A stretch of DNA of 64,000 nt from the NCBI RefSeq assembly GCF_000424625.1, contig NZ_AUKG01000001.1, forward strand, positions 620,001 to 684,000, written 5' to 3'. This DNA is from Conexibacter woesei Iso977N (GTDB taxonomy: Bacteria > Actinomycetota > Thermoleophilia > Solirubrobacterales > Solirubrobacteraceae). The position numbers and the translations under genes were made by a program. Every line of letters begins with the position of its first letter. Position 1 is the stretch's first letter. Positions 6,904 through 28,347 of this stretch are shown here, one piece after another. The notes beneath the pieces were generated by a model. That model did not search any database and had not been told where the DNA came from. It saw only the letters and a list, made by a program, of their open reading frames with translations.

Positions 6904-9189
6904 CTACGGCGGTGGTGCGCCGGTGCCGCCCGCGGCCCCGGTGGTCCCGCCGCCGGTGCCCGGCGCGCCCGTGCCCGCGCCGGTCGTGCCGTTGCCGGTC
7001 CCCGCGGTCCCGGTCCCGTTGCCGGTCGCGCCCGTGCCGCCGCCGGTCCCGGTCGTCCCGGTCCCGCCGCCGGTCGTCGGCTGGCCCTGCGGCGGCGACG
7101 CGTACTGGTCGCTCGGGTACCTCGCCGAGCCGTTGCCGGTGCCGGTCCCGTCAGCGCCGTTGCTGCCGATCCCCGGCCTCTTGTCCGGGCTGGTCGTGTA
7201 CGACCCCGGATCGACCTGGTTGTCCTTGACGCCGGTCCTGGAGTACTTGCCGAAGAACGGCGTCGAGACGAACGGCTGCCTGGGCTTCGGGAAGTCCCCG
7301 CAGTAGTTGCCGTGCGCGGTCTTCATGTACTCGCCCCAGATCGGCGCCGCGACCGCGCCGCCCTGCGCGTTGGCGCCGAGCGTCCGGCGGTCGTTGGCGT
7401 GGCCGACCCAGACCGAGGTGGACAGCTTCGGCGTGTAGCCGACGAACCACGCGTCGGTGAAGTCGTCGACCGTGCCGGTCTTGCCCGCGGCCGGGCAGCC
7501 GATCTGCGCCCGGACGCCGGTGCCCGACTGGACGTTCTCCTTCAGGATCTTCGTCGCCTCGGCGGTGACGCCGTCCTCGAACGCCCTGTGGCGGTGGGGC
7601 CTCTCGACGTGGCAGTCGAAGCCGCCGAGCCGCTTGGGGAAGCAGACCTTCGTGACGGCCGTGACCTTGTTGCGCCACCCACCGGACGCGATCGTCGCGT
7701 ACGCGTTGGCCATCTCCAGCGGCGAGACGCCGTGCTTGAGGCCGCCCAGGCCCTCGGCCGGGACGCTCTCCATCGGCGACTTGACGCCCATGTCGCGCGC
7801 GGTCTGCGTCACGTTCGGCGGCCCGACGTCGAGGTCGAGCTGCTGGTAGACGGTGTTGTCGGACGTCAGCGTCGCCTTGACGAGGTTCTCGCGGCCCGCG
7901 TAGGTGCCCTCGAACGTGTGCACGTCGATCGGGCCGTAGGTGGGGTCGTTGAACTTCAGCGGCATCGACGTGTAGGTCGTCGAGTCCGGGTTGACGCCCC
8001 TGCGCAGGGCGGTCATCAAGACCATCACCTTGAACGTCGAGCCCGCCGCGTAGCCGCCCTGGGACGCGAGGTCGAACTTCGACTGCGCGTAGTTGCCGGT
8101 CGACGCCATCGCCTTGAGGTCGCCGTTGGCCGGGTCGACGGTGACGATCGCGCCCGAGCGGTCGGTCCCGCCGAGGTTGTCGTCCAGCGCCTTGCGCGCC
8201 GCGCGCTGCATCTTCAGGTTCAGCGTCGTGTAGATGTGCATGCCGCCGGCCTGCACCTTCTTCGCGCCGTACTCGTCGACGAGCTGCTGCTTGACGTAGT
8301 CGTAGAAGTAGGACTCGCGCTTCTTGGAGTAGTAGCCGTTGGCCTTCACTCCGAGCCTGGACCTGATCGCCCTCGCGGCCGCCGCCTGCGTGATGTAGCC
8401 CTGGTCGGCCATGTGGCGCAGGACGTCGTCGCGACGCGCGCGCGCCGCCTGCGCCGACAGGAACGGGTTGTACAGCGACGGCGCCTGCGGCAGGCCGGCC
8501 AGCAGCGCCGCCTGGGCCAGCGTCAGCTTGTTGGCGGGCTTGTCGAAGAAGATGCGCGCCGCGGCCTGGATCCCGATCGCGGTCTTGCCGCCGACCGTGC
8601 CGTACGGGACGTTGTTGAGGTACTGGTCCAGGATCCAGCGCTTGCCCTTGCGCCCCGGGTGCTGGTTCTCCAGCTCCTCGGCGAGCTTCGCCTCGCGGAT
8701 CTTGCGCTTGTAGCCCTCGACGCCGGTCCGGACCCTGTCCCTGGTGTACATGTTGCGGATCAGCTGCATCGTCAGCGTCGAGCCGCCCTGGACGTCGTCC
8801 TTGGACTCCAGGTTCTTGACCGCCGCGCGGACGACGCCCTCGAAGTCGACGCCCTTGTGCTCGAAGAAGCGCCGGTCCTCGATCGCGACCGTCGCGTCGC
8901 GCATCACCTGCGGGATCTGCCTGCCGGTGATCGGCGTGCGCAGGACGTCGGAGGAGATGAAGCCCAGGCGGCTGCCGTCGGCGGCGTAGATGACCGACGC
9001 GGCGCCCTGGTCCAGGGGCTTGATCGTGTCCAGCGTCGGGCCGGAGTTGGCGACCGAGACGACCCAGCCGACCGCGCCGAGCCCGGCGAGGGCGGCGAAC
9101 GTCGTGAGGACGCCGATGGCGAGGAAGAGCGGCCGGGCAGGGCCGCCCCTGTTCCGGCGCCGACGGCGCTGTCGTTCGCGGCGAGACAT
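6904..9189 (-). CDS. Class A penicillin-binding protein (transglycosylase/transpeptidase)
   Basis: This 761-residue bifunctional peptidoglycan synthase has an arginine-rich cytoplasmic start, one TM helix at about 21-47, and then a GT51 transglycosylase with catalytic Glu104 in ATVAIEDRRFFEHKGVD, GGSTLTMQLIRN and RKIREAKLAEELE. The penicillin-binding transpeptidase has STFK at about 383-386, SDN in LTSDNTVYQQ, and KTGT at about 570. The last roughly 120 residues are a low-complexity Gly/Thr/Pro tail probably exposed at the surface. ATG at 9189 begins MSRRERQRRR, with no clear Shine-Dalgarno. A TAGAAT hexamer lies about 60 nt upstream. The family is certain; which PBP paralogue is not. Confidence 0.95.
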   Translation of the reverse strand: MSRRERQRRRRRNRGGPARPLFLAIGVLTTFAALAGLGAVGWVVSVANSGPTLDTIKPLDQGAASVIYAADGSRLGFISSDVLRTPITGRQIPQVMRDATVAIEDRRFFEHKGVDFEGVVRAAVKNLESKDDVQGGSTLTMQLIRNMYTRDRVRTGVEGYKRKIREAKLAEELENQHPGRKGKRWILDQYLNNVPYGTVGGKTAIGIQAAARIFFDKPANKLTLAQAALLAGLPQAPSLYNPFLSAQAARARRDDVLRHMADQGYITQAAAARAIRSRLGVKANGYYSKKRESYFYDYVKQQLVDEYGAKKVQAGGMHIYTTLNLKMQRAARKALDDNLGGTDRSGAIVTVDPANGDLKAMASTGNYAQSKFDLASQGGYAAGSTFKVMVLMTALRRGVNPDSTTYTSMPLKFNDPTYGPIDVHTFEGTYAGRENLVKATLTSDNTVYQQLDLDVGPPNVTQTARDMGVKSPMESVPAEGLGGLKHGVSPLEMANAYATIASGGWRNKVTAVTKVCFPKRLGGFDCHVERPHRHRAFEDGVTAEATKILKENVQSGTGVRAQIGCPAAGKTGTVDDFTDAWFVGYTPKLSTSVWVGHANDRRTLGANAQGGAVAAPIWGEYMKTAHGNYCGDFPKPRQPFVSTPFFGKYSRTGVKDNQVDPGSYTTSPDKRPGIGSNGADGTGTGNGSARYPSDQYASPPQGQPTTGGGTGTTGTGGGTGATGNGTGTAGTGNGTTGAGTGAPGTGGGTTGAAGGTGAPPP

Positions 9190-9250
9190 GGGTTCGGGGA
9201 GCGTGCGAGCGTTGTCGCGGCCCTCCCGAGGCCACGCCCGCGAGGTCCTG

Positions 9251-9256
9251 ATTCTA
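9251..9256 (-). promoter_or_regulatory. Candidate -10 element TAGAAT for the PBP gene
   Basis: TAGAAT on the minus strand in the 112-bp gap before the PBP gene is the best match to a -10 consensus there. It would give a leader of about 55 nt. No good -35 is seen at 16-18 bp. Confidence 0.35.
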
Positions 9257-9301
9257 GCCCGCTCGCGGGAGTCCTTCGCCGACGAACTGTCAGGACACGC
9301 G

Positions 9302-10081
9302 TCAGCGCACGCCCGCGCCGCGCAGCGCGCCGAGCGCGGAGGCGCGCAGATCGCCCTCCCTCGCCAGGCGTTCGGATGGCGGTCCGGGCGCGCCCATGAC
9401 GAGGATCCGGACGCCCTCGTGGGTCGTCTCGGCGATCCGCGCGCGCACGCCCTCCAGCGCCCGGATCGCCTCCAGGGCGGCCGCTTCGTCGGCGTCCGGC
9501 GCCAGCCAGACCGACACCTCGGTCGCCACGGTCGGCGAGCGGATCGAGTCGTTGCGGATGATCCCGCCGGCCAGGCGCTCGTTCGGGACCAGCAGGCGCG
9601 AGTCGGCGCCGGTGCGCAGCCACGTGTAGGTCAGCCCGACGTCCTCGACGGTCCCGGTCTCGCCCTCGAACGTGACGAGGTCGCCGATCCGGATCGGCTG
9701 GACGACCGCCAGCAGGATCCCCGCGACCGCGTTGGCCAGCGTCTGGCGGGCCGCGAAGCCGATGACGGCGGCGGTGATCGCCGACGACGCCAGGATCGTG
9801 TGGCCGATCTGGTCGAGCGCGTCGAACTCGCTCAGCGCGACCGCCACGACGATGATCCCGACGACCGCCTCGATCGCCCGCCGCGCGAAGCGCAGCCGCG
9901 TCGCGGTGTCCCGCGACAGACCGGCCTCGCCGGTGAGCGCGCCCACGGCACGCGTCGCCCGCCGGACCAGGTAGCGGTCGAAGAAGAAGACGATCAGCGC
10001 GCCCGCGAGCAGGATGCCCACGGCGGTGAACAGGTTGTCGTACTTATCGAGGAACGACTCGGATGCGAGGATGTGCAGCAC
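9302..10081 (-). CDS. Small-conductance mechanosensitive channel family (MscS) protein
   Basis: This is a 259-residue inner-membrane channel for osmotic down-shock. TM helices are at about 15-33, 60-78 and a pore helix around 85-110, where AAVIGFAARQTLANAVAG corresponds to the Gly/Ala-rich TM3 of MscS. VVQPIRIGDLVTFEGETGTVEDVG and NERLAGGIIRNDS mark the beta domain. The GTG at 10081 is chosen because TACGGT lies 10 nt upstream. The reading frame stays open far upstream, but that part overlaps the divergent gene. It is shorter than E. coli MscS by about 30 residues. Confidence 0.9.
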   Translation of the reverse strand: MLHILASESFLDKYDNLFTAVGILLAGALIVFFFDRYLVRRATRAVGALTGEAGLSRDTATRLRFARRAIEAVVGIIVVAVALSEFDALDQIGHTILASSAITAAVIGFAARQTLANAVAGILLAVVQPIRIGDLVTFEGETGTVEDVGLTYTWLRTGADSRLLVPNERLAGGIIRNDSIRSPTVATEVSVWLAPDADEAAALEAIRALEGVRARIAETTHEGVRILVMGAPGPPSERLAREGDLRASALGALRGAGVR

Positions 10082-11363
10082 CGTGGGCGTGACCGTACAA
10101 AAGCGCCGGGCCCAGCGCCTGCGCGCCGCGTGGTCGTCCTGGCGACCCGACGTCGCCGTCGCCTGGCGCGCGCTGTGGGCGTCGCGGCTGCTGGTCTGGG
10201 TCTCCGGCCTCGGCGCGATCGCGATCTGGGGGATCCACAAGACCCACGAGCACGACTTCGACCGGGCCGGGCTGACGCGCCCGTTCGGCGGGTTCCTGGA
10301 CACCTTGGTCGCGCCCGCCGCGCGCTGGGACTCCTACTGGTACCTGGACATCGCCCACCACGGCTACCAGGCGTCGCCGAACCGCCCCGCGTTCTTCCCG
10401 TTGTACCCCATGTCGATCAAGGCGATCGCGTGGGTGACCGGCGAGCCGCTGCTCGTCGGCCTGTTGTTGTCGTTCATCTGCTTCTTGGTGGCCTTGGCCG
10501 CGTTCCACCGCCTGGCCGTGATCGAGGTCGGAGCGGACGGCGCGCGCTGGGCGGTCTGGGGCCTCGTCCTGTTCCCGGGCTCGCTGTGGTTCAGCGCGGT
10601 CTACAGCGAGTCGCTGTTCCTGATGGTGTCGGTCGGCGCCGTGCTGTGCGCGCGCCGCGAGCGCTTCGCGTGGGCGGGCGTGCTCGGCGCGCTGGGCGCC
10701 GCGACGCGCAGCGCCGGGCTGGTCCTGATGCTCCCGCTGGCGCTGCTGTGGTGGGACGCCTACCGCGGCGCGCAGCCGCGCACCGCCGCCCGCCCCTCGC
10801 CGCTCAGCCTCGGCTGGGTCCTGCTCGTCCCGCTCGGCCTCGTCGCCTACTGCGGCTACCTCGCGGCCGACGGCGGCTCGTGGCACGCGCCGTTCGCCGC
10901 CCAGGACGTGTGGCACCGCGCGTTCAAGGGCCCGTTCTACGGGATCAACCAGGGCGCGATCGCCGCGTGGGACGGGCTGCGCCAGATCGTCCACGGCTCG
11001 CCGACGCCGGTCTACTGGGACCGCGCGGGCGGCGACAGCATCGCGGTCGGCCGCCACGACGTCGCGCTGTTCCTGTGCCTCGTGCTCGGCGCGATCGGGC
11101 TGGTCGGCGCGTTCCGGCGCCTGCCGCTCGCCCACGGCGCCTACGCGCTGTGCGCGCTGCTGCTGCCGCTCAGCTACCCGGTCGGCCCGCAGCCGCTGAT
11201 GTCGCTGCCGCGCTTCGAGGCCGTCCTGTACCCGCTGTTCCTCTGGCTCGGCTGGTGGCTGGCGCGCCGCGGCACGCTCTGGCGCGTGGCCGTCCTCGGG
11301 ACGTTCGCCGTCTTCCTCGCCGCCTGCTCGGCGCTGTTCTCGACCTGGCACTGGGTCGCATGA
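10071..11363 (+). CDS. GT-C membrane mannosyltransferase, PIG-V-like
   Basis: This polytopic protein of about 430 residues has a luminal-side motif typical of the PIG-V/GT-C group: RWDSYWYLDIAHHGY, followed by FFPLYP. These glycosyltransferases take sugar from a polyprenyl-phosphate donor and act on the outer face of the membrane. At least eight hydrophobic segments are visible. The start is uncertain: ATG 10071 (GAGG directly before it) and GTGs at 10083 and 10089 are possible, all within or beside the 5' end of the divergent mscS-like gene. It is coupled by ATGA to the HAD hydrolase. The acceptor is unknown. Confidence 0.83.
   Translation: MCSTVGVTVQKRRAQRLRAAWSSWRPDVAVAWRALWASRLLVWVSGLGAIAIWGIHKTHEHDFDRAGLTRPFGGFLDTLVAPAARWDSYWYLDIAHHGYQASPNRPAFFPLYPMSIKAIAWVTGEPLLVGLLLSFICFLVALAAFHRLAVIEVGADGARWAVWGLVLFPGSLWFSAVYSESLFLMVSVGAVLCARRERFAWAGVLGALGAATRSAGLVLMLPLALLWWDAYRGAQPRTAARPSPLSLGWVLLVPLGLVAYCGYLAADGGSWHAPFAAQDVWHRAFKGPFYGINQGAIAAWDGLRQIVHGSPTPVYWDRAGGDSIAVGRHDVALFLCLVLGAIGLVGAFRRLPLAHGAYALCALLLPLSYPVGPQPLMSLPRFEAVLYPLFLWLGWWLARRGTLWRVAVLGTFAVFLAACSALFSTWHWVA
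10092..10097 (-). promoter_or_regulatory. Putative -10 hexamer TACGGT for the mscS-like gene
   Basis: TACGGT on the minus strand is followed by 10 nt and the GTG at 10081. It lies inside the first codons of the divergent gene, so the two transcription units overlap at their 5' ends. Confidence 0.4.
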
Positions 11364-22746: not shown

Positions 22747-23490
22747 CTACGAGCAGGCGATCGCCCCGTTGGTCTGATCGCCCGCCGTCGCGCCCGTGCT
22801 GTCGTAGAGGTAGTGCGCGGTGACCTGGTACCTCCAGCCGCCCTTCGGGCACCTCGTGCTCACGATGTAGTCCTTGGCGTAGGACTTGCCGCCGACCGTG
22901 AACCTGATGTTGTTGAGGTTCAACGGCACCCCGGCCACGAGCTGCAGCGAGCGCGGGATCGCCACGCTCTCGCTCTCGCCCCACGGGCCGGTGGCCGGCC
23001 GTGTGGTCCTGAGCGTCAGCGTCTCCCGCACGCGGGCGGGGTTGTCGAGGACCGCGTAGGCGTACGTGATGTCCGGGCCGCCGTTGGCGAACGTCACGCG
23101 CAGCGACGCCGGGACCGTGTCGGCCCTGCCGGTCGCCGTCGCCGCGCCCATGATCGACCCCTTCGGGCAGCCGGCCGGTCCCCGCCGGTCGAGCGTCGCC
23201 TTCGAGCAGGTCGCGAAGCGGCCGCGGTTCCACACCAGCCCGCGCCCGACCAGGATGTCGATCCCGGTCACGATCGGCGGCTCCAGGTCGGGCGCGGTGG
23301 TCAGCCTGGCGGTTGCGGAGATCGCCAGGCCGCGGGGGTGGGCGGGCGTCCCCGCCCTGCTCGGCGAGGCGACGGCGTGCGCCTCGATCCGTGTGGCCGG
23401 CTGGTCCTGGGCGAACGCCGGGACGACGACGGCGACGACGGCGCCCGCCGCGGCCACGGCGGCGAGGGCATGCGGGGCTCGGGTCTTCAT
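22747..23490 (-). CDS. Secreted protein of unknown function with four cysteines
   Basis: This is a 247-residue protein. ATG 23490 starts a clear signal peptide (MKTRAPHALAAVAAAGAVV, cleavage near AFAQD). The mature part looks all-beta and has four cysteines in FATCSKA, AGCPKG, TRCPKG and the C-terminal IACS, which could form two disulfides. I do not recognise the fold; similar CPKG-containing secreted proteins occur as paralogues in Solirubrobacterales as far as I know. It is divergent from the 1414-residue secreted protein across 219 bp and 42 bp upstream of the LuxR-type gene. The function is unassigned. Confidence 0.75.
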   Translation of the reverse strand: MKTRAPHALAAVAAAGAVVAVVVPAFAQDQPATRIEAHAVASPSRAGTPAHPRGLAISATARLTTAPDLEPPIVTGIDILVGRGLVWNRGRFATCSKATLDRRGPAGCPKGSIMGAATATGRADTVPASLRVTFANGGPDITYAYAVLDNPARVRETLTLRTTRPATGPWGESESVAIPRSLQLVAGVPLNLNNIRFTVGGKSYAKDYIVSTRCPKGGWRYQVTAHYLYDSTGATAGDQTNGAIACS

Positions 23491-23580
23491 GGCGCCGAGT
23501 CTGCGCCGCGGCGGCGCGCACCACCACGGGGCGAGCACCCTGAACTCGACCCTGAAGGACATCAACTCGACCCCAGGTCA

Positions 23581-23598
23581 CCAGATGATGACATCTGG
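23581..23598. promoter_or_regulatory. Inverted repeat CCAGAT-N6-ATCTGG in a divergent promoter region
   Basis: A perfect 6-bp dyad with a 6-bp spacer lies in the 219-bp region between two divergent secreted-protein genes. Just downstream a direct repeat GGGAAACGG/GGGAAACCG occurs. It could be an operator. No adjacent regulator is obviously its partner, though the LuxR-type gene is nearby. Confidence 0.35.
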
Positions 23599-23696
23599 GA
23601 AACGGCTGGGAAACCGCTGTGAAGGGTCCCATCGGCGACAAATGCGGTACGGGGCCGTGCCGGGTACGCACGCGTCCCCGGACCGTCTCCCTCACC

Positions 23697-23703
23697 GGAA
23701 GGA
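23697..23703 (+). promoter_or_regulatory. Shine-Dalgarno GGAAGGA deciding a TTG start
   Basis: GGAAGGA sits 6 nt before the TTG at 23710. This is one of the strongest ribosome-binding sites in the window. It supports the rare TTG start, which is directly followed by a textbook signal peptide. Confidence 0.7.
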
Positions 23704-23709
23704 CCCTCG

Positions 23710-26700
23710 TTGTCATCCCCACACACGCCGCGTTCGCGGCGTCGCGCCCGGCTGGGCGCCGCCGTGGCGGCCGCTGCCCTCGTCGTGGCGCTGCCCACCG
23801 CCGCGCAGGCTGCCGACCAGCTCGCGCTGACCGACAGGACCGAGCCCCTCGGGCCCGGCATCACCCTCCGCCACCTCAAGACGCTGAGCGCGTCCGGGTG
23901 GCTCGACGAGCAGGTGCTGACCGCCGACCTGGGCAACCCGGCCGTCTCGTCGGACCTGCTCAGCTCCGGCAAGGTCGCCAAGGGCTCGCCGATCTCCGAC
24001 CAGGCGGACGCCGCCGGCGCGATCGCGGGCGTCAACGGCGACTTCTTCGACATCGACAACTCGCAGGCGCCGCTCGGCGTCATGGTGCAGAACGGGACGC
24101 TGCTGAAGTCCCAGCAGGCGGGCGCCTGGAACGCGGTCGGCGTCGGCCAGGACGGCATCGGCCGCCTGATCGACACGACGCTGCAGGCGTCCTCGACCGT
24201 GCACGGCGTCGACTACCCGCTCGCCACGGTCAACGCCGCGGGCGGCGCGCCCGCGGGCGCGATGATCGCCTACACCTCGGCGTGGGGCTCGTACTCGCGC
24301 GCGATCGGGATCGGCACCTCCACCAACGTCGCCGAGGCGACGATCGCCGACGGCAAGGTCGTCTCGATCAACTCGACCGGCGCCGGCTCGGGCGACATCC
24401 CGGCCAACGGCTTCGTGCTCGTCGGCCGCGACAGGTCGGCCGACGCGATCCGCACCTTCCAGCCCGGCGACAACGCGTCGTTGTCCTATGGGTTGAAGGA
24501 CGCCGTCGCGCAGCAGATGAAGTTCGCGCTCGGCTCCAACACGCCGCTGGTCACCGACGGCCAGGTCAACCCGCAGGGCGACACCTCGGTCGCGCCGCGC
24601 ACGGCGATCGGGTTCAAGGACGGCGGCAAGACCATGTTGTTGGTCACGACCGACGGCCGGCAGACGTTCAACCCGGGCCCGACGCTGACCCAGATGGGCC
24701 AGATCATGCAGGGCCTCGGCGCGACCATGGCCATGAACCTGGACGGCGGCGGCTCGACGACGATGGTCGCCGCGCCGCTGGGCCAGCAGGACGTCACGGT
24801 CCGCAACGTGCCGTCCGACGGGCACGAGCGCAACGATCCCGACGGCGTCGGCCTGTTCGTCAGCAGGGGCGACGGCACGGTCCACGACCTCGTGGTCCAG
24901 CCCGCGGGCGACGACTCAGAGGACGCCCGCGTCTTCCCCGGCCTGCACCGCACGCTGGTCGCCAAGGGCCTCGACGACCACCTGACGCCGGTCGCGCTGG
25001 CGCGCGGCGACGTCCGCTGGTCGGCCAACGGCGGCGCGACGGTCGACAACGGCCAGGTCGCCGCGCCGGACACCACGTCCGGCGGGTCGATCCGCGTGCG
25101 CGCCACGACCGACACCGCGCAGGAGGACGAAGCGGTGCGGGTCCTGCATCCGGTCCAGGCGCTCGAGACCTCCAGCCAGCGGCTGTCGTTCGGCGCCGCG
25201 GGCGCCGACCAGGCCCAGACGCTGACGGTCACCGGCCGCGACGACCAGGGCTACACGGCCCCGATCGAGGCCGAGGACCTGGACCTCGACTACGACCACT
25301 CGGTCCTGCAGATCCAGCCGAGCGGCTCGGCGCTGAAGATCGTCCCGCTGAAGGCCGGCGGCACGGTGCTGACGCTGAAGGCCGCGGGCGTGACCAAGCA
25401 GCTCGCGATCTCGGTCGGCGTCCAGACCGTTGACGCCTATGACTTCAACGCCGGCGGCGTCGCCGCGGGCCGCTGGAAGTTCACGGGCACGGCGACCGCC
25501 AACGCCAGGGTCACCGACGCGAGCGACGGCATCCACATCGACTTCGCCGCCGCGCGCAACATCGGCCTCACGGCCAACGGCTCGGGCCCGAGGATCCAGG
25601 TGCCGCTGCCCGGCCAGCCGCTGGTCGTGCGGATGCACGTGTACTCGTCGGTCGCGATGGCCCTGTCCTACCTGTCGGTCGCCAACGGCAACGGCGGCTA
25701 TACCGGCCTGTACTCCACGCCGGTCAGGGTCGGCTGGCAGGACATCGACTTCGCGATCCCGGCCTCGACGCCGTTCCCGATCTCCTTCGACACGTTCCAG
25801 GGGATCGAGACGACCGTCGCCAACCAGAGGGCCGGGACCATGATCATCGGGTCGGTCTCGGCCGACATCCCGAGCCCCGTCGACCAGCCCGCGGTCCCCG
25901 CGCTGCAGGCCGACCGGCTGATCTCGCCCGACGGCACGCTGCCCACGGGCGGCAGGGACTGGAACTTCGCGACGTTGAGCGACATCCAGTTCACCGCCGA
26001 CAACCCGACCCTCGCCCAAGCGGGCATCGCGGCGATCCAGCGGATCCGCAAGACCCACCCGGACCTCCTGGTCCTCAACGGCGACGTCACCGACCGCGGC
26101 CTGCCGCAGGACGTCACGCTCGCCCGCCAGGTCCTGGAGGAGGCCGGCTGCGACATCATCCCGGTCGGTCAGGAGCCCGCAGCGGACAGCACGCCCGATC
26201 CGAACGGCAAGCTGCCCTGCTACTACGTGCCGGGCAACCACGAGTCCTATGGGTTGAACAACGTCCAGTCCGACACGAGGCCGTGGGAGGCCGAGTTCGG
26301 CCGGCCCTACCGGACCTTCGACCACAAGGGCACGCGGTTCGTCCTGCTCGACTCGGCGCTCGGCAACCTGCACGCCTCGGCGTGGCAGCAGCTGCCGATG
26401 CTCCAGCAGGCGCTGGACTCGGCCAAGGACGACAACTCGATCGACGACGTGATGGTGTTCGCGCACCACCCGGTCGACGACCCGGCCGACACGAAGTCCT
26501 CGCAGCTCGGCGACCGCGACGAGGTCAGGCTGATCGAGAAGCTGCTCACGGACTTCCGCGAGCAGTCGGGCAAGGGCGCGGCGATGGTCGGCTCCCACGC
26601 CCAGATCGCCAACGTCCACCGCGTCGACGGCGTCCCGTACACGGTGCTCCCGTCCTCGGGCAAGGACCCGTACGGCACGCCGGACCGCGGCGGCTTCACC

Positions 26701-27954
26701 GGCTGGCTGCGCTGGGCGGTCGATCCGGCCAAGGACGCCGGCCAGCAGTGGCTGACCGCCGACGTCCACGCGTTCGCGCAGTCGATCACGCTCAACACGC
26801 CCGACAGCGTCGAGGTCTCGCAGACCGCGACGCTGAGCGGCTCGATCGTGCAGCCGGAGGGCGTGGCGCCCGGGACCCGCGTGGTGCCGCTGCGCTACCC
26901 GATGTCGGTGCGCTGGGGCGGCGACGACGGGCTGGCGGTCGGCTCGGGCGCCGACGCGATCGACGCAGCCCGCAGGGCCGGCAAGGTCGCGATCCTCGAT
27001 CCGCGGACGGAGGTCCTGACCGGCCTGCGCGCGGGCAGGGTCGCGATCACCGTGACCAACGACTCGCTGCGCCAGTACACGGACGACTCGTCGCTGGCGC
27101 CCGTCACGGTCAGCAAGACCGTGACGGTCAGGCCCTACAGCGGGCCCGGCCCGCGGGCCGATGTCGCCACGCCGGTCTTCCCGGACCAGATCGTCGGGAC
27201 GATCAGCGCCGCGCAGAGGGTCGTCGTCACCAACACCGGCGACGCCCCGCTGCACGTCAAGAACATCAAGATCACCGACGCCGACGGCCGCAGCGCCGGC
27301 GACTTCGTGATCGCCGACGACGGCTGCGGCTCGGCGACGGTCCCGGCGGGCGCGGCGTGCACGGTCCTGGTCCGGTTCGCGCCGGCCCGGGAGTCGGTCA
27401 CCTCGCACGAGACGCTGACGCTCGGCGACGACAGCGCCGAGGGCGCGCACGCGGTCGACCTGACCGGGACGAGCGTCCCGGCGCCGGCGGTCGGCGAGAA
27501 GGGCGACAGGGGCGACACCGGCGCGACGGGCGATACCGGCCCGGCGGGCCCGGCCGGGGCCACCGGAGCGACCGGTCCGCAGGGCCCGACCGGTGAGCAG
27601 GGCCCGGTGGGTCAGCAAGGTGACCAAGGGACCAGGGGCGACACCGGCCTGACCGGCGCCAACGGCGCCGCCGGACCGGTCGGAGCCCAGGGCGTCAAGG
27701 GCGACCCCGGTCGCGACGCCGCCGTCACCTGCAAGGTCAAGGGCAGCAGGAGCGTCGTCTGCTCGGTCGTCTTCGTCGCCGGGCAGGCGAAGGTGAAGGC
27801 GGCGTCCTCCGCACGCCTGACGCGCAACGGCCGCACCTACGCCAAGGGCTCCGTCGCCCGCCTGCGCACGGTGCGCAGGGTGGTCAAGGGCGGCTACAGC
27901 CTCCGCGTGGGCAGCGGCAGGAGCGCCGCGATCTACCGGATCACGATCCGCTAG
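23710..27954 (+). CDS. Secreted phosphodiester glycosidase (NAGPA) / metallophosphoesterase fusion with collagen-like stalk
   Basis: This is a 1414-residue exported protein. A signal peptide (1-34, AQA|AD) precedes an NAGPA-type phosphodiester glycosidase domain at about 60-390 (AGVNGDFFD, AMNLDGGGSTTMV, NDPDGVGLFV). Beta-sandwich regions fill about 390-740. A calcineurin-like phosphoesterase spans about 750-1010, with LSDIQF, LNGDVTDRG, VPGNHES, FAHHP and MVGSHAQ. The first and last motifs have Gln where His is usual. An ASH/choice-of-anchor-D-like domain (about 1150-1257) is followed by 25 uninterrupted Gly-X-Y triplets (1262-1336) and a 78-residue C-terminal domain with two cysteines. No LPxTG or TM anchor is seen. 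A role in degrading phosphodiester-linked glycopolymers is inferred. Confidence 0.9.
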   Translation: MSSPHTPRSRRRARLGAAVAAAALVVALPTAAQAADQLALTDRTEPLGPGITLRHLKTLSASGWLDEQVLTADLGNPAVSSDLLSSGKVAKGSPISDQADAAGAIAGVNGDFFDIDNSQAPLGVMVQNGTLLKSQQAGAWNAVGVGQDGIGRLIDTTLQASSTVHGVDYPLATVNAAGGAPAGAMIAYTSAWGSYSRAIGIGTSTNVAEATIADGKVVSINSTGAGSGDIPANGFVLVGRDRSADAIRTFQPGDNASLSYGLKDAVAQQMKFALGSNTPLVTDGQVNPQGDTSVAPRTAIGFKDGGKTMLLVTTDGRQTFNPGPTLTQMGQIMQGLGATMAMNLDGGGSTTMVAAPLGQQDVTVRNVPSDGHERNDPDGVGLFVSRGDGTVHDLVVQPAGDDSEDARVFPGLHRTLVAKGLDDHLTPVALARGDVRWSANGGATVDNGQVAAPDTTSGGSIRVRATTDTAQEDEAVRVLHPVQALETSSQRLSFGAAGADQAQTLTVTGRDDQGYTAPIEAEDLDLDYDHSVLQIQPSGSALKIVPLKAGGTVLTLKAAGVTKQLAISVGVQTVDAYDFNAGGVAAGRWKFTGTATANARVTDASDGIHIDFAAARNIGLTANGSGPRIQVPLPGQPLVVRMHVYSSVAMALSYLSVANGNGGYTGLYSTPVRVGWQDIDFAIPASTPFPISFDTFQGIETTVANQRAGTMIIGSVSADIPSPVDQPAVPALQADRLISPDGTLPTGGRDWNFATLSDIQFTADNPTLAQAGIAAIQRIRKTHPDLLVLNGDVTDRGLPQDVTLARQVLEEAGCDIIPVGQEPAADSTPDPNGKLPCYYVPGNHESYGLNNVQSDTRPWEAEFGRPYRTFDHKGTRFVLLDSALGNLHASAWQQLPMLQQALDSAKDDNSIDDVMVFAHHPVDDPADTKSSQLGDRDEVRLIEKLLTDFREQSGKGAAMVGSHAQIANVHRVDGVPYTVLPSSGKDPYGTPDRGGFTGWLRWAVDPAKDAGQQWLTADVHAFAQSITLNTPDSVEVSQTATLSGSIVQPEGVAPGTRVVPLRYPMSVRWGGDDGLAVGSGADAIDAARRAGKVAILDPRTEVLTGLRAGRVAITVTNDSLRQYTDDSSLAPVTVSKTVTVRPYSGPGPRADVATPVFPDQIVGTISAAQRVVVTNTGDAPLHVKNIKITDADGRSAGDFVIADDGCGSATVPAGAACTVLVRFAPARESVTSHETLTLGDDSAEGAHAVDLTGTSVPAPAVGEKGDRGDTGATGDTGPAGPAGATGATGPQGPTGEQGPVGQQGDQGTRGDTGLTGANGAAGPVGAQGVKGDPGRDAAVTCKVKGSRSVVCSVVFVAGQAKVKAASSARLTRNGRTYAKGSVARLRTVRRVVKGGYSLRVGSGRSAAIYRITIR
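27493..27717 (+). repeat. Collagen-like Gly-X-Y repeat, 25 triplets
   Basis: Twenty-five consecutive Gly-X-Y triplets, rich in Asp, Thr, Pro, Ala and Gln, begin GEKGDRGDTGAT and end GDPGRD. Uninterrupted Gly periodicity predicts a trimeric triple-helical stalk near the C-terminus of the secreted fusion protein. Confidence 0.9.
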
Positions 27955-28347
27955 CGCAGCGCGAGCCGGCAGCATCGCGGCACCCGGCCGCGTCGCCACG
28001 CCGTGCGTCCCCCGAGGGCGCGCGGCCGGCGGCGCGGCCGTTCGCGTTCCTGGGGAGCGCCTGTGCGCCATGCGCACGCCGTTTGGGCCTGCGCCGATTC
28101 GGCACACCGTTGCGGTGACGACTTGTCCAAACTGGAGTCGCTTGGCTCTGGGACTCGCGTGAAGGTGAGATTGTGTGTGGTCAAGTCACCTGACATATCC
28201 CCCTCAAGAGGAGTAGCCTGCGCGCGGTTCGTGGCTGGGCCTCTCCCATTGAGGAGGTGCAGAGGCCCTGATAGCGCGGACGTTCGAACAGCTTCTGGGA
28301 GAGGGACCCATCAAGCAGGACGACACCACACTCGTGGGGGCCGAGGC
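27955..28347. other. 393-bp intergenic region before the ABC importer
   Basis: This is the longest gap in the window. It has GC-rich dyads in its first 100 bp, possibly terminating the preceding gene, and a more AT-rich part around 28110-28240. I see no RNA gene or conserved riboswitch and no coding frame I would defend. Confidence 0.5.
28171..28199 (+). promoter_or_regulatory. Candidate promoter TTGTGT-17-CATATC
   Basis: A -35-like TTGTGT and -10-like CATATC are separated by 17 bp in the AT-richer part of the gap. It would give a leader of about 140 nt for the importer operon. Both hexamers deviate from consensus. Confidence 0.25.

What the first reader, a model, noticed from the sequence alone, without database searches (positions are those of the whole stretch)
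23710..27954. Secreted NAGPA glycosidase, metallophosphoesterase, ASH and collagen-like stalk in one chain
I know of NAGPA-domain and calcineurin-like phosphoesterase proteins as secreted enzymes in actinobacteria, and of bacterial collagen-like stalks. A single protein combining both catalytic domains with 25 uninterrupted Gly-X-Y triplets suggests a trimeric, surface-displayed enzyme. A phosphodiester glycosidase next to a phosphoesterase fits stepwise degradation of sugar-phosphodiester polymers (capsule, teichoic-type polymers or glycolipids). It has a TTG start with a very strong ribosome-binding site.
Basis: partly seen in the sequence, partly recalled or inferred. Interest (0 to 1): 0.65.

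Follow-up and report, generated by a model that had tools for sequence, protein, structure and literature searches.

The report
Collagen-tailed two-enzyme secreted phosphodiester hydrolase
A soil bacterium makes a secreted protein in which two predicted phosphate-bond-cutting enzymes sit on a collagen-like stalk that ends in a small, strongly positively charged cap, and related bacteria put the same stalk and cap on several other kinds of phosphate-releasing enzymes.

Summary
One 1414-aa ORF (23710-27954, +) has a signal peptide, a NAGPA domain (E 1.2e-39), a metallophosphoesterase (7e-9), an ASH/choice-of-anchor-D-like domain (below curated cut-offs), 25 uninterrupted Gly-X-Y triplets and a 78-aa C-terminal domain. 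An AlphaFold model puts the enzymes with NAGPA (Z 23-34) and GpdQ-type phosphodiesterases (Z 24).

The two-enzyme fusion is not new: it recurs in Actinobacteria here and is named in print (Updegrove 2024). Two things stand out. First, the phosphoesterase site is non-canonical family-wide: DxQ in place of DxH in 31 of 32 rows, and no second His of GHxH in 30 of 30 readable rows. Second, the tail is a reusable cassette: collagen, then a two-cysteine, acid-free, +18 cap that fits no Pfam family.

The cap is in 51 of 146 genomes of its family and 3 of 396 in a phylum sample, all of that family. It follows collagen directly in 30 of 35 and 23 of 24 places. Phosphoesterases make up 16 of 29 and about 10 of 24 scanned carriers, against at least 7 of 60 other collagen ORFs.

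Best reading: a tethered, probably trimeric enzyme that frees phosphate from sugar-phosphodiester polymers. Trimer, anchoring and substrate are inferred.

The parts
23595..23627 (+). Three CTGKGAA-type units at an 11-bp period (starts 23595, 23606, 23617), 83-115 bp before the start codon; possible binding site of an OmpR/PhoB-family regulator
   Evidence: the two-unit pattern (up to 1 mismatch) has 7 matches genome-wide, 2 of them here, against 0 for the reversed control; not found in the stretch examined for 19 homologues
23697..23703 (+). Shine-Dalgarno-like GGAAGGA, 6-base spacer to TTG
23710..27954 (+). Whole coding sequence, 1414 aa plus TAG stop
   Evidence: homologues
23710..23814 (+). 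Sec-type signal peptide region (aa 1-35, ...ALPTAAQA-A), read by eye
   Evidence: sequence; crude regex
23815..24870 (+). NAGPA / phosphodiester glycosidase domain (about aa 36-387); motifs NGDFFDI, PRTA, DGRQ, NLDGGGS
24871..25911 (+). Predicted almost all-beta middle region (about aa 388-734), mostly well predicted, fold not identified
   Evidence: no Pfam match for aa 401-737
25912..26799 (+). Metallophosphoesterase domain (aa 735-1030): D758-x-Q760, G791-D792-x-x-D795, G842-N843-H844-E845, H919, H963-A-Q965
26800..27129 (+). Conserved predicted beta-rich domain after the phosphoesterase (aa 1031-1140)
27130..27483 (+). ASH / choice-of-anchor-D-like Ig domain (aa 1141-1258), below curated cut-offs
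27493..27717 (+). Collagen-like stalk, 25 uninterrupted Gly-X-Y triplets (aa 1262-1336), about 21 nm if triple-helical; KGD near each end
27718..27951 (+). C-terminal cap (aa 1337-1414): predicted 7-strand beta domain, 2 Cys (1341, 1351), 18 basic and 0 acidic residues, no Pfam family

Best explanation
This is a secreted, collagen-tailed, two-enzyme hydrolase of sugar-phosphodiester polymers. The chain is exported by a signal peptide. Three chains probably assemble through the Gly-X-Y stalk, so that three NAGPA plus phosphoesterase heads sit at one end of a rod of about 21 nm. The cap at the other end (+18 per chain, no acidic residue) most likely holds the rod, by charge, to an anionic cell-surface or matrix polymer, in place of an LPXTG or membrane anchor. 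The NAGPA domain would cut the glycosyl-1-phosphate bond and leave a phosphomonoester. The phosphoesterase domain, with a complete beta-type metal site and an altered alpha-type site, would then cut the remaining phosphoester and free phosphate near the cell. Because relatives put the same stalk and cap on PhoA, PhoX, PAP-type, GDPD and other phosphoesterases, the likely role is organic-phosphate scavenging. Shown: the ORF, the domains, the predicted folds, motif conservation, the cap's charge and place, and the passengers. Inferred: trimer, anchoring, substrate, order of reactions, role.
For: Domains. Model of aa 32-1140: mean pLDDT 89.6, pTM 0.86. NAGPA part: 6ozd Z 33.6, 3ohg Z 28.1, guinea-pig NAGPA Z 25.5 (rmsd 2.4, 224 aligned); phosphoesterase part: GpdQ Z 24.3 (rmsd 2.1, 223 aligned). 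NAGPA signature motifs shared with solved members. Catalytic-motif conservation in 32 rows. No LPXTG in the protein, and by crude patterns neither LPXTG nor a C-terminal membrane segment in 32 family rows. Cap charge 18 basic, 0 acidic, against a mean net charge of +1.4 (sd 6.7) for the last 78 aa of 24 window ORFs picked by codon composition, this one included and the highest; mean net +20, range 11 to 28, in 53 related caps. Cap directly after collagen in 26 of 31 re-fetched places plus the 4 NAGPA-family places of the same search, and in 23 of 24 places in two further genomes. Phosphoesterase passengers: 16 of 29 cap carriers, 14 of the 26 that have stalk and cap together, and about 10 of 24 in the second set, against at least 7 of 60 other collagen ORFs. 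Fisher p 2.5e-5 for 16 of 29 and 7.7e-4 with the three phytase-like rows not counted as phosphoesterases; 7.2e-5 for 14 of 26; 0.0035 for 10 of 24. Precedent for surface phosphoesterases fused to NAGPA, and for ShfP releasing glycerol: PMC11488536 (abstract and section 7 read).
Against: No family row has the motif-I His (0 of 32) or the second motif-V His (0 of 30 with a residue there), so the phosphoesterase may be weak, mononuclear or inactive; one relative (L029) has lost the site altogether. Core relatives in Lentzea, Streptomyces and Saccharopolyspora, in Solirubrobacter (L007, L008) and in two genomes of the same family (L050, L051) have no collagen tail, so the tail is not needed for the enzymes. 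Among the 25 largest neighbour clusters shown, none recurs beyond the family itself and the shared gene order of the Lentzea-type loci, so no polymer or transport gene supports the role. About half the cap's carriers are not phosphoesterases (Kelch, FG-GAP, RCC1, rhamnosidase, M14 peptidase). Two of the 16 phosphoesterase rows (L150, L156), and the PF04185 row of the second set (L257), do not have collagen next to the cap. The counts include orthologues from related genomes, so the p-values overstate independence, and the control count is a lower bound. The cap's model is only moderate (pLDDT 77) and its best structural matches are weak (Z 6.7 at most).
Confidence: 0.42

Rival explanations
1. 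Only the NAGPA domain is an enzyme here. The phosphoesterase has become a binding or structural domain (or a poor mononuclear enzyme), and the protein is a surface glycosidase or lectin-like adhesin.
For: Motif I reads DxQ in 31 of 32 rows and the second motif-V His is absent in 30 of 30 rows with a residue there. A phosphoesterase-fold protein titled as an anchor, Plasmodium GAP50, is among the structural matches (3tgh, Z 20.1).
Against: D758, Q760, D792, N843, H844 and H919 are kept in 31 of 32 rows and H963 in 30 of 31, which points to a selected active site; the one degenerate row (L029) shows what relaxed selection would look like.
Confidence: 0.25
2. The stalk and cap are an adhesin-type device: the cationic cap binds the anionic substrate or extracellular DNA (or a surface in soil), and the enzymes are cargo at the cell side or free in the matrix. 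Phosphate scavenging is not the common theme.
For: The cap is cationic and is also found on Kelch, FG-GAP and RCC1 repeat proteins. Several bacterial collagen-like proteins act in adherence (PMC8968730, passages read).
Against: Phosphoesterases of several unrelated folds are over-represented among cap carriers.
Confidence: 0.25
3. The protein acts in turnover or signalling at the cell's own envelope, as proposed for ShfP in B. subtilis, and not in feeding. Tandem copies in relatives are duplicates tuned to different envelope polymers.
For: ShfP relatives include NAGPA fusions and ShfP releases glycerol (PMC11488536). Tandem copies occur in L004, L025, G198 and G268. The repeat upstream has sites elsewhere just before a response-regulator gene and between divergent HtrA-like genes (identified by eye), which suggests an envelope-stress link.
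Against: The repeat was not found in the stretch examined for 19 homologues; no envelope gene recurs beside the gene in the clusters shown.
Confidence: 0.2

Closest known systems
ShfP (YvnB) of Bacillus subtilis and the surface calcineurin-like phosphoesterase radiation
   Same: [quoted passage not shown] the paper states that relatives may be fused to NAGPA.
   Different: Here motif I is DxQ and the HxH pair is not kept, while ShfP has H1114 and H1116 (PMC11188070, passages); a collagen stalk and cationic cap stand where ShfP has a lamin-tail domain and an Ig array.
NAGPA / 'uncovering enzyme' and bacterial DUF2233 proteins (3ohg, 6ozd, 5h3k, 6pku)
   Same: Same fold (Z 25.5-33.6 for these four) and the motifs RTAxG, DG(R)Q, NLDGGGS, with small variations.
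   Different: No phosphoesterase or collagen domain is named or matched in these entries; the window protein has both.
GpdQ glycerophosphodiesterase (2dxl, 2zo9, 3d03)
   Same: Nearest solved relative of the phosphoesterase by sequence profile (1.4e-6) and by structure (Z 24.3).
   Different: Single-domain enzyme with DxH and the HxH pair (ligands recalled, not from a call).
Bacterial collagen-like proteins Scl1/2, BclA, Lcl
   Same: Gly-X-Y run flanked by non-collagenous domains (matches; review passages).
   Different: Those are adhesins or exosporium proteins, and Scl has an LPXTG anchor. Here the stalk carries two enzyme domains and ends in a cationic beta cap.
ColQ-tailed acetylcholinesterase (recalled)
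   Same: Enzyme held in a matrix by a collagen tail with cationic sites (recalled).
   Different: Eukaryotic, and the tail is a separate subunit.

Membership tests
NAGPA / phosphodiester glycosidase (PF09992) | Profile score above the curated cut-off | tested here: met
   136.7 bits against cut-off 25
NAGPA / phosphodiester glycosidase (PF09992) | NAGPA fold and signature motifs of solved members | tested here: met
   VIA Z 23.2-33.6 against eight entries; RTA..G, DG.Q, NLDGGGS aligned
NAGPA / phosphodiester glycosidase (PF09992) | Cleaves a glycosyl-1-phosphodiester | not testable with these tools
   needs an assay
Calcineurin-like metallophosphoesterase (PF00149) | Profile score above cut-off and fold | tested here: met
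   36.8 bits against 21.5; GpdQ Z 24.3
Calcineurin-like metallophosphoesterase (PF00149), canonical dinuclear type | Motif I DxH and motif V GHxH | tested here: not met
   D758-x-Q760 and S-H963-A-Q965; DxH in 0 of 32 rows, second motif-V His in 0 of 30 rows with a residue there. Canonical ligand roles recalled
Calcineurin-like metallophosphoesterase (PF00149) | Motif II GDxxD, motif III GNH, motif IV H | tested here: met
   kept in 31 of 32 rows
Bacterial collagen-like protein | Long uninterrupted Gly-X-Y run | tested here: met
   25 triplets; PF01391 46.8 bits against 27.2
Bacterial collagen-like protein | Forms a triple helix | not testable with these tools
   no multimer prediction or CD available
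ASH / choice-of-anchor D domain | Score above the curated cut-off | tested here: not met
   ASH 17 (whole) and 20.6 (shorter stretch) against 27 bits; choice_anch_D 36.9 against 45; E-value 4.2e-9 leaves a distant relative likely
Sortase-anchored (LPXTG) surface protein | C-terminal LPXTG | tested here: not met
   none in the protein or at the C-terminus of 32 family rows

The most novel reading that the evidence does not exclude
Bacteria of this family (named relatives: Conexibacter, Solirubrobacter) display a whole set of phosphate-releasing enzymes of unrelated folds (NAGPA-phosphoesterase, PAP-type, PhoA, PhoX, GDPD, LTD-EEP) on collagen rods that end in one shared, undescribed two-cysteine, nearly acid-free cap. 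The cap works as an electrostatic anchor on the anionic envelope: a tethering system of its own kind, and a bacterial counterpart of collagen-tailed enzymes.
Probability: 0.3. Interest if true: 0.75.

Novelty: new variant of a known kind. Interest (0 to 1): 0.55.

Why it matters
Collagen-like proteins of bacteria are best known as adhesins and spore-coat proteins. A recurring stalk and cap that carries phosphate-releasing enzymes would be a different use of bacterial collagen, an anchor with neither LPXTG nor a C-terminal membrane segment detected, and a handle on how these little-studied soil bacteria obtain organic phosphorus. The phosphoesterase with DxQ and no HxH, conserved across Actinobacteria, is also a clear test of how far the dinuclear site can change.

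Tried and rejected
PHO-box idea: the triple 11-bp repeat upstream looked like a PhoB site. The genome-wide search gave 7 matches, 2 of them this gene's own, against 0 in the reversed control. By eye, the five other sites lie before an MprA-like regulator gene, between divergent HtrA-like genes, and by genes with no visible phosphate link. The stretch examined for 19 homologues (200 bp before to 330 bp into the open frame) lacks it. Kept only as a possible OmpR/PhoB-family site.

Operon or partner gene: among the 25 largest clusters shown, no neighbour recurs beyond the gene order shared by the Lentzea-type loci. Sortase or membrane anchor: none found by simple patterns. Sigma-70-type promoter: none found in 23400-28200; terminator-like sites no more than in shuffles. 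Known fold for the cap: best VIA Z 6.7, under the level that the tool calls meaningful. Known family for the cap: no Pfam family matched more than 2 of 24 members at E 0.1. GAP50 and other families absent or present in that list are not evidence of function.

Slips of mine: and the first protein used an out-of-frame start at 25920 and mean nothing; redone in frame. One search counted 15 of 24 caps because of repeated row names, redone on all 24; its Fisher tests used 6 of 60 controls, later raised to 7. In one search my ORF choice was wrong for several loci (among them L098, L105, L106, L109, L110, L114); redone.

Dropped rows: L159 and L160 (67 and 90 aa frames, weak matches) before the Pfam scan of 29; 4 NAGPA-family places (window gene, G198 twice, G111) were not re-fetched. 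In the second set, NAGPA-family places and frames under 400 aa of G672 and G673 were left out before the 24. The 60 control ORFs are what was left of the listed collagen hits (frames of about 400 aa or more, eight genomes, whose list is itself cut) after taking out the cap set and the NAGPA family; so they are not a random sample. Eight of them have weak cap matches between 1e-8 and 1e-4 (L193, L179, L224, L163, L214, L187, L218, L200); two of these, L193 and L163, are related to the PF04185 protein L257 and are counted in the control. Several control frames are cut by the fetched stretch or look spurious (L175, L182, L183, L198, L199, L207).


Full report
What is there. The ORF 23710-27954 (+) starts at TTG with GGAAGGA six bases upstream and encodes 1414 aa. 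Pfam finds NAGPA (1.2e-39), Collagen (2.5e-12) and Metallophos (7.1e-9; 6.1e-10 on the domain alone). The ASH call is below the curated cut-off in Pfam, and choice_anch_D below it in NCBIfam. The collagen run is 25 triplets with mostly Asp, Ala and Pro in X, mostly Thr and Gln in Y with a single Pro there, and KGD near both ends.

Whether it is more than chance. Relatives with the same order of domains occur in other genomes. In GTDB genomes, 37 loci encode relatives of all or part of the protein. Those with NAGPA, phosphoesterase, collagen and a C-terminal domain include Conexibacter and Solirubrobacterales genomes and, outside the class as I recall the taxonomy, Nocardioides lianchengensis; Lentzea, Saccharopolyspora, Umezawaea and Streptomyces oceani have the two-enzyme core without collagen. 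In a sample of 299 genomes of the class, 10 besides the window's own have a match that spans both enzyme domains (G081, G098, G111, G157, G166, G184, G190, G198, G234, G268); the copies examined from G157 and G234 lack collagen (L050, L051). The three other same-genus genomes listed in that sample (G017, G228, G298) show only short NAGPA matches.

Structure. AlphaFold on aa 32-1140 with 32 rows gave mean pLDDT 89.6 and pTM 0.86. VIA-align puts the N-terminal part with 6ozd (Z 33.6), 3ohg (28.1), 5h3k (27.8) and vertebrate NAGPA (23.2-25.5), and the phosphoesterase with GpdQ (Z 24.3, rmsd 2.1 over 223), Lmo2642 and Rv0805 (about 22) and purple acid phosphatases (about 19-21). Aligned profiles show the NAGPA motifs RTAxG, DG(R)Q and NLDGGGS in the solved proteins too. 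The middle region is mostly well predicted but was barely tested by that search.

An altered phosphoesterase site. In 32 aligned rows, D758, D792, D795, N843, H844 and H919 are kept in 31, and H963 in 30 of 31 (L010 is cut by its contig). But motif I reads DxQ in 31 of 32 and DxH in none, and the second His of motif V is Q in 16, G in 11, S in 2 and A in 1 of the 30 rows that have a residue there. L029 has lost the whole site. In GpdQ terms (ligand roles recalled) the beta site is intact and the alpha site has lost both His. ShfP, by contrast, has H1114 and H1116, and alanine substitutions there, as at its other motif residues, partly or wholly abolished complementation (passages of PMC11188070). 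The invariance argues for a working, unusual site. Activity is not shown.

The tail is a cassette. A profile of the 78-aa domain (alignment A2) gave 35 matches in 18 of 249 class genomes, 15 of the 18 in the window's family. I re-fetched 31 of the 35; the domain directly follows a Gly-X-Y run in 26. The 4 not re-fetched are NAGPA-family places, in which it also follows collagen, so 30 of 35. Of the 5 that do not, two are short weak matches (L159, L160), one has collagen further upstream (L150) and two have none (L153, L156). With the larger alignment A3 it is in 51 of 146 genomes of the family, up to 18 copies in one, and in 3 of 396 genomes of a phylum sample, all of the same family. These searches score only some of each genome's candidates, so they are lower bounds; one search also had hits in three genomes of the class outside the family (G188, G117, G042, the last weak). 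Outside the class, L006 (Nocardioides) carries one. No Pfam family matched more than 2 of 24 members. Its model is a seven-strand beta domain of moderate confidence (pLDDT 77) with only weak structural matches (Z 6.7 at most). It has exactly two Cys in 52 of 53 copies, the first typically a few residues after the stalk; from the strand register of the model (strands 2-8 and 12-18, Cys at 5 and 15) they would face each other in the first hairpin, so an intrachain disulfide is likely (inference). Here it has 18 basic and no acidic residues while the enzyme, ASH and collagen parts are net acidic; 53 copies average +20 net, 48 with at most two acidic residues. The last 78 residues of 24 window ORFs, picked by codon composition, average +1.4, sd 6.7, and this protein is the maximum. 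Caps of other collagen ORFs are cationic too (22 percent basic, 2.7 percent acidic in 38).

What the tail carries. Of 29 cap-bearing ORFs scanned one by one, 16 have a phosphoester-cleaving domain: Metallophos 5 (one is NAGPA plus Metallophos, a relative of the window protein), Alk_phosphatase 3, PhoX 2, GDPD 3, phytase-like 3 (the last a family named for an activity that may not apply). Of the 26 among the 29 with stalk and cap together, 14 are phosphoesterases; L150 and L156 are the two without. The others are Kelch, FG-GAP, RCC1, M14 peptidase, SQHop-like, or nothing. As a control I took 60 collagen ORFs from eight genomes that were left after removing that set. Tallies and homology give at least 7 phosphoesterases: L208 and L228 (by homology), L198 (by motif), L163 and L193 (PF04185 tallies and their relative L257), L211 and L195 (Exo_endo_phos tally and relatives; assignment inferred). 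The tallies show only 25 families each, so weak single matches may be hidden. A second set from two further genomes (24 ORFs, NAGPA family left out) has Metallophos 3, Alk_phosphatase 2, GDPD 2, Exo_endo_phos 2 and PF04185 1, plus two weak phytase-like, so about 10 if no protein counts twice; 23 of 24 follow collagen, the exception being the PF04185 protein L257. Fisher p is 2.5e-5 for 16 of 29 against 7 of 60 and 7.7e-4 with the phytase-like rows not counted, 7.2e-5 for 14 of 26, 0.0035 for 10 of 24 and 0.0074 for 9 of 23. Many rows are orthologues, so these are descriptive. Phosphoesterase families also appear with other caps (L208 is the window genome's own PAP-type collagen protein; L228 is a GDPD), so caps seem to be exchanged while the collagen tail stays.

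What it most likely does. See Best explanation. The new weight comes from the passengers, which point to phosphate release as a common theme, and from the charged cap, which offers an anchor. Neither is proved.

Novelty. NAGPA with a calcineurin-like phosphoesterase is in print (PMC11488536, section 7 read). In the listings, from an open-access library that lacks most subscription journals, I saw no paper on collagen-tailed phosphoesterases, on collagen-like proteins of Thermoleophilia, or on this cap. I rate it a new variant of a known kind.

Noticed in passing
window 23595-23627: Three CTGKGAA units at an 11-bp period upstream of the gene; other genome sites of the two-unit pattern lie just before an MprA-like response-regulator gene (L169) and between divergent HtrA-like protease genes (L172), both named by eye, which suggests an envelope-stress regulon.
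   Followed up: partly
L208 (G000 C1 about 118.9-122.2 kb): The same genome has a second collagen-tailed phosphoesterase, of purple-acid-phosphatase type, with a different C-terminal cap; its relatives L142 and L146 carry the cap described here.
   Followed up: partly
L004, L025, L046/G268, G198: Tandem copies of the NAGPA-phosphoesterase-collagen gene, about 50 percent identical to the window protein.
   Followed up: no
L042, L044, L045, L046, L048, L049, L164: A second type of C-terminal cap after collagen (pattern like VTVSCRL...RRSVxCTV), similar in size and two-cysteine start, possibly a distant relative of the first type.
   Followed up: no
L029 (Kineococcus xinjiangensis) 7785-11258: A relative whose phosphoesterase has lost the metal-binding motifs while NAGPA stays recognisable.
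   Followed up: no
G000, G198, G081, G111, G184, G212, G157, G166: These genomes are rich in collagen-like frames (11 to 51 Pfam Collagen matches per genome, overlapping matches included), among them two fused to penicillin amidase and three to M14 peptidase in one set of 30.
   Followed up: partly
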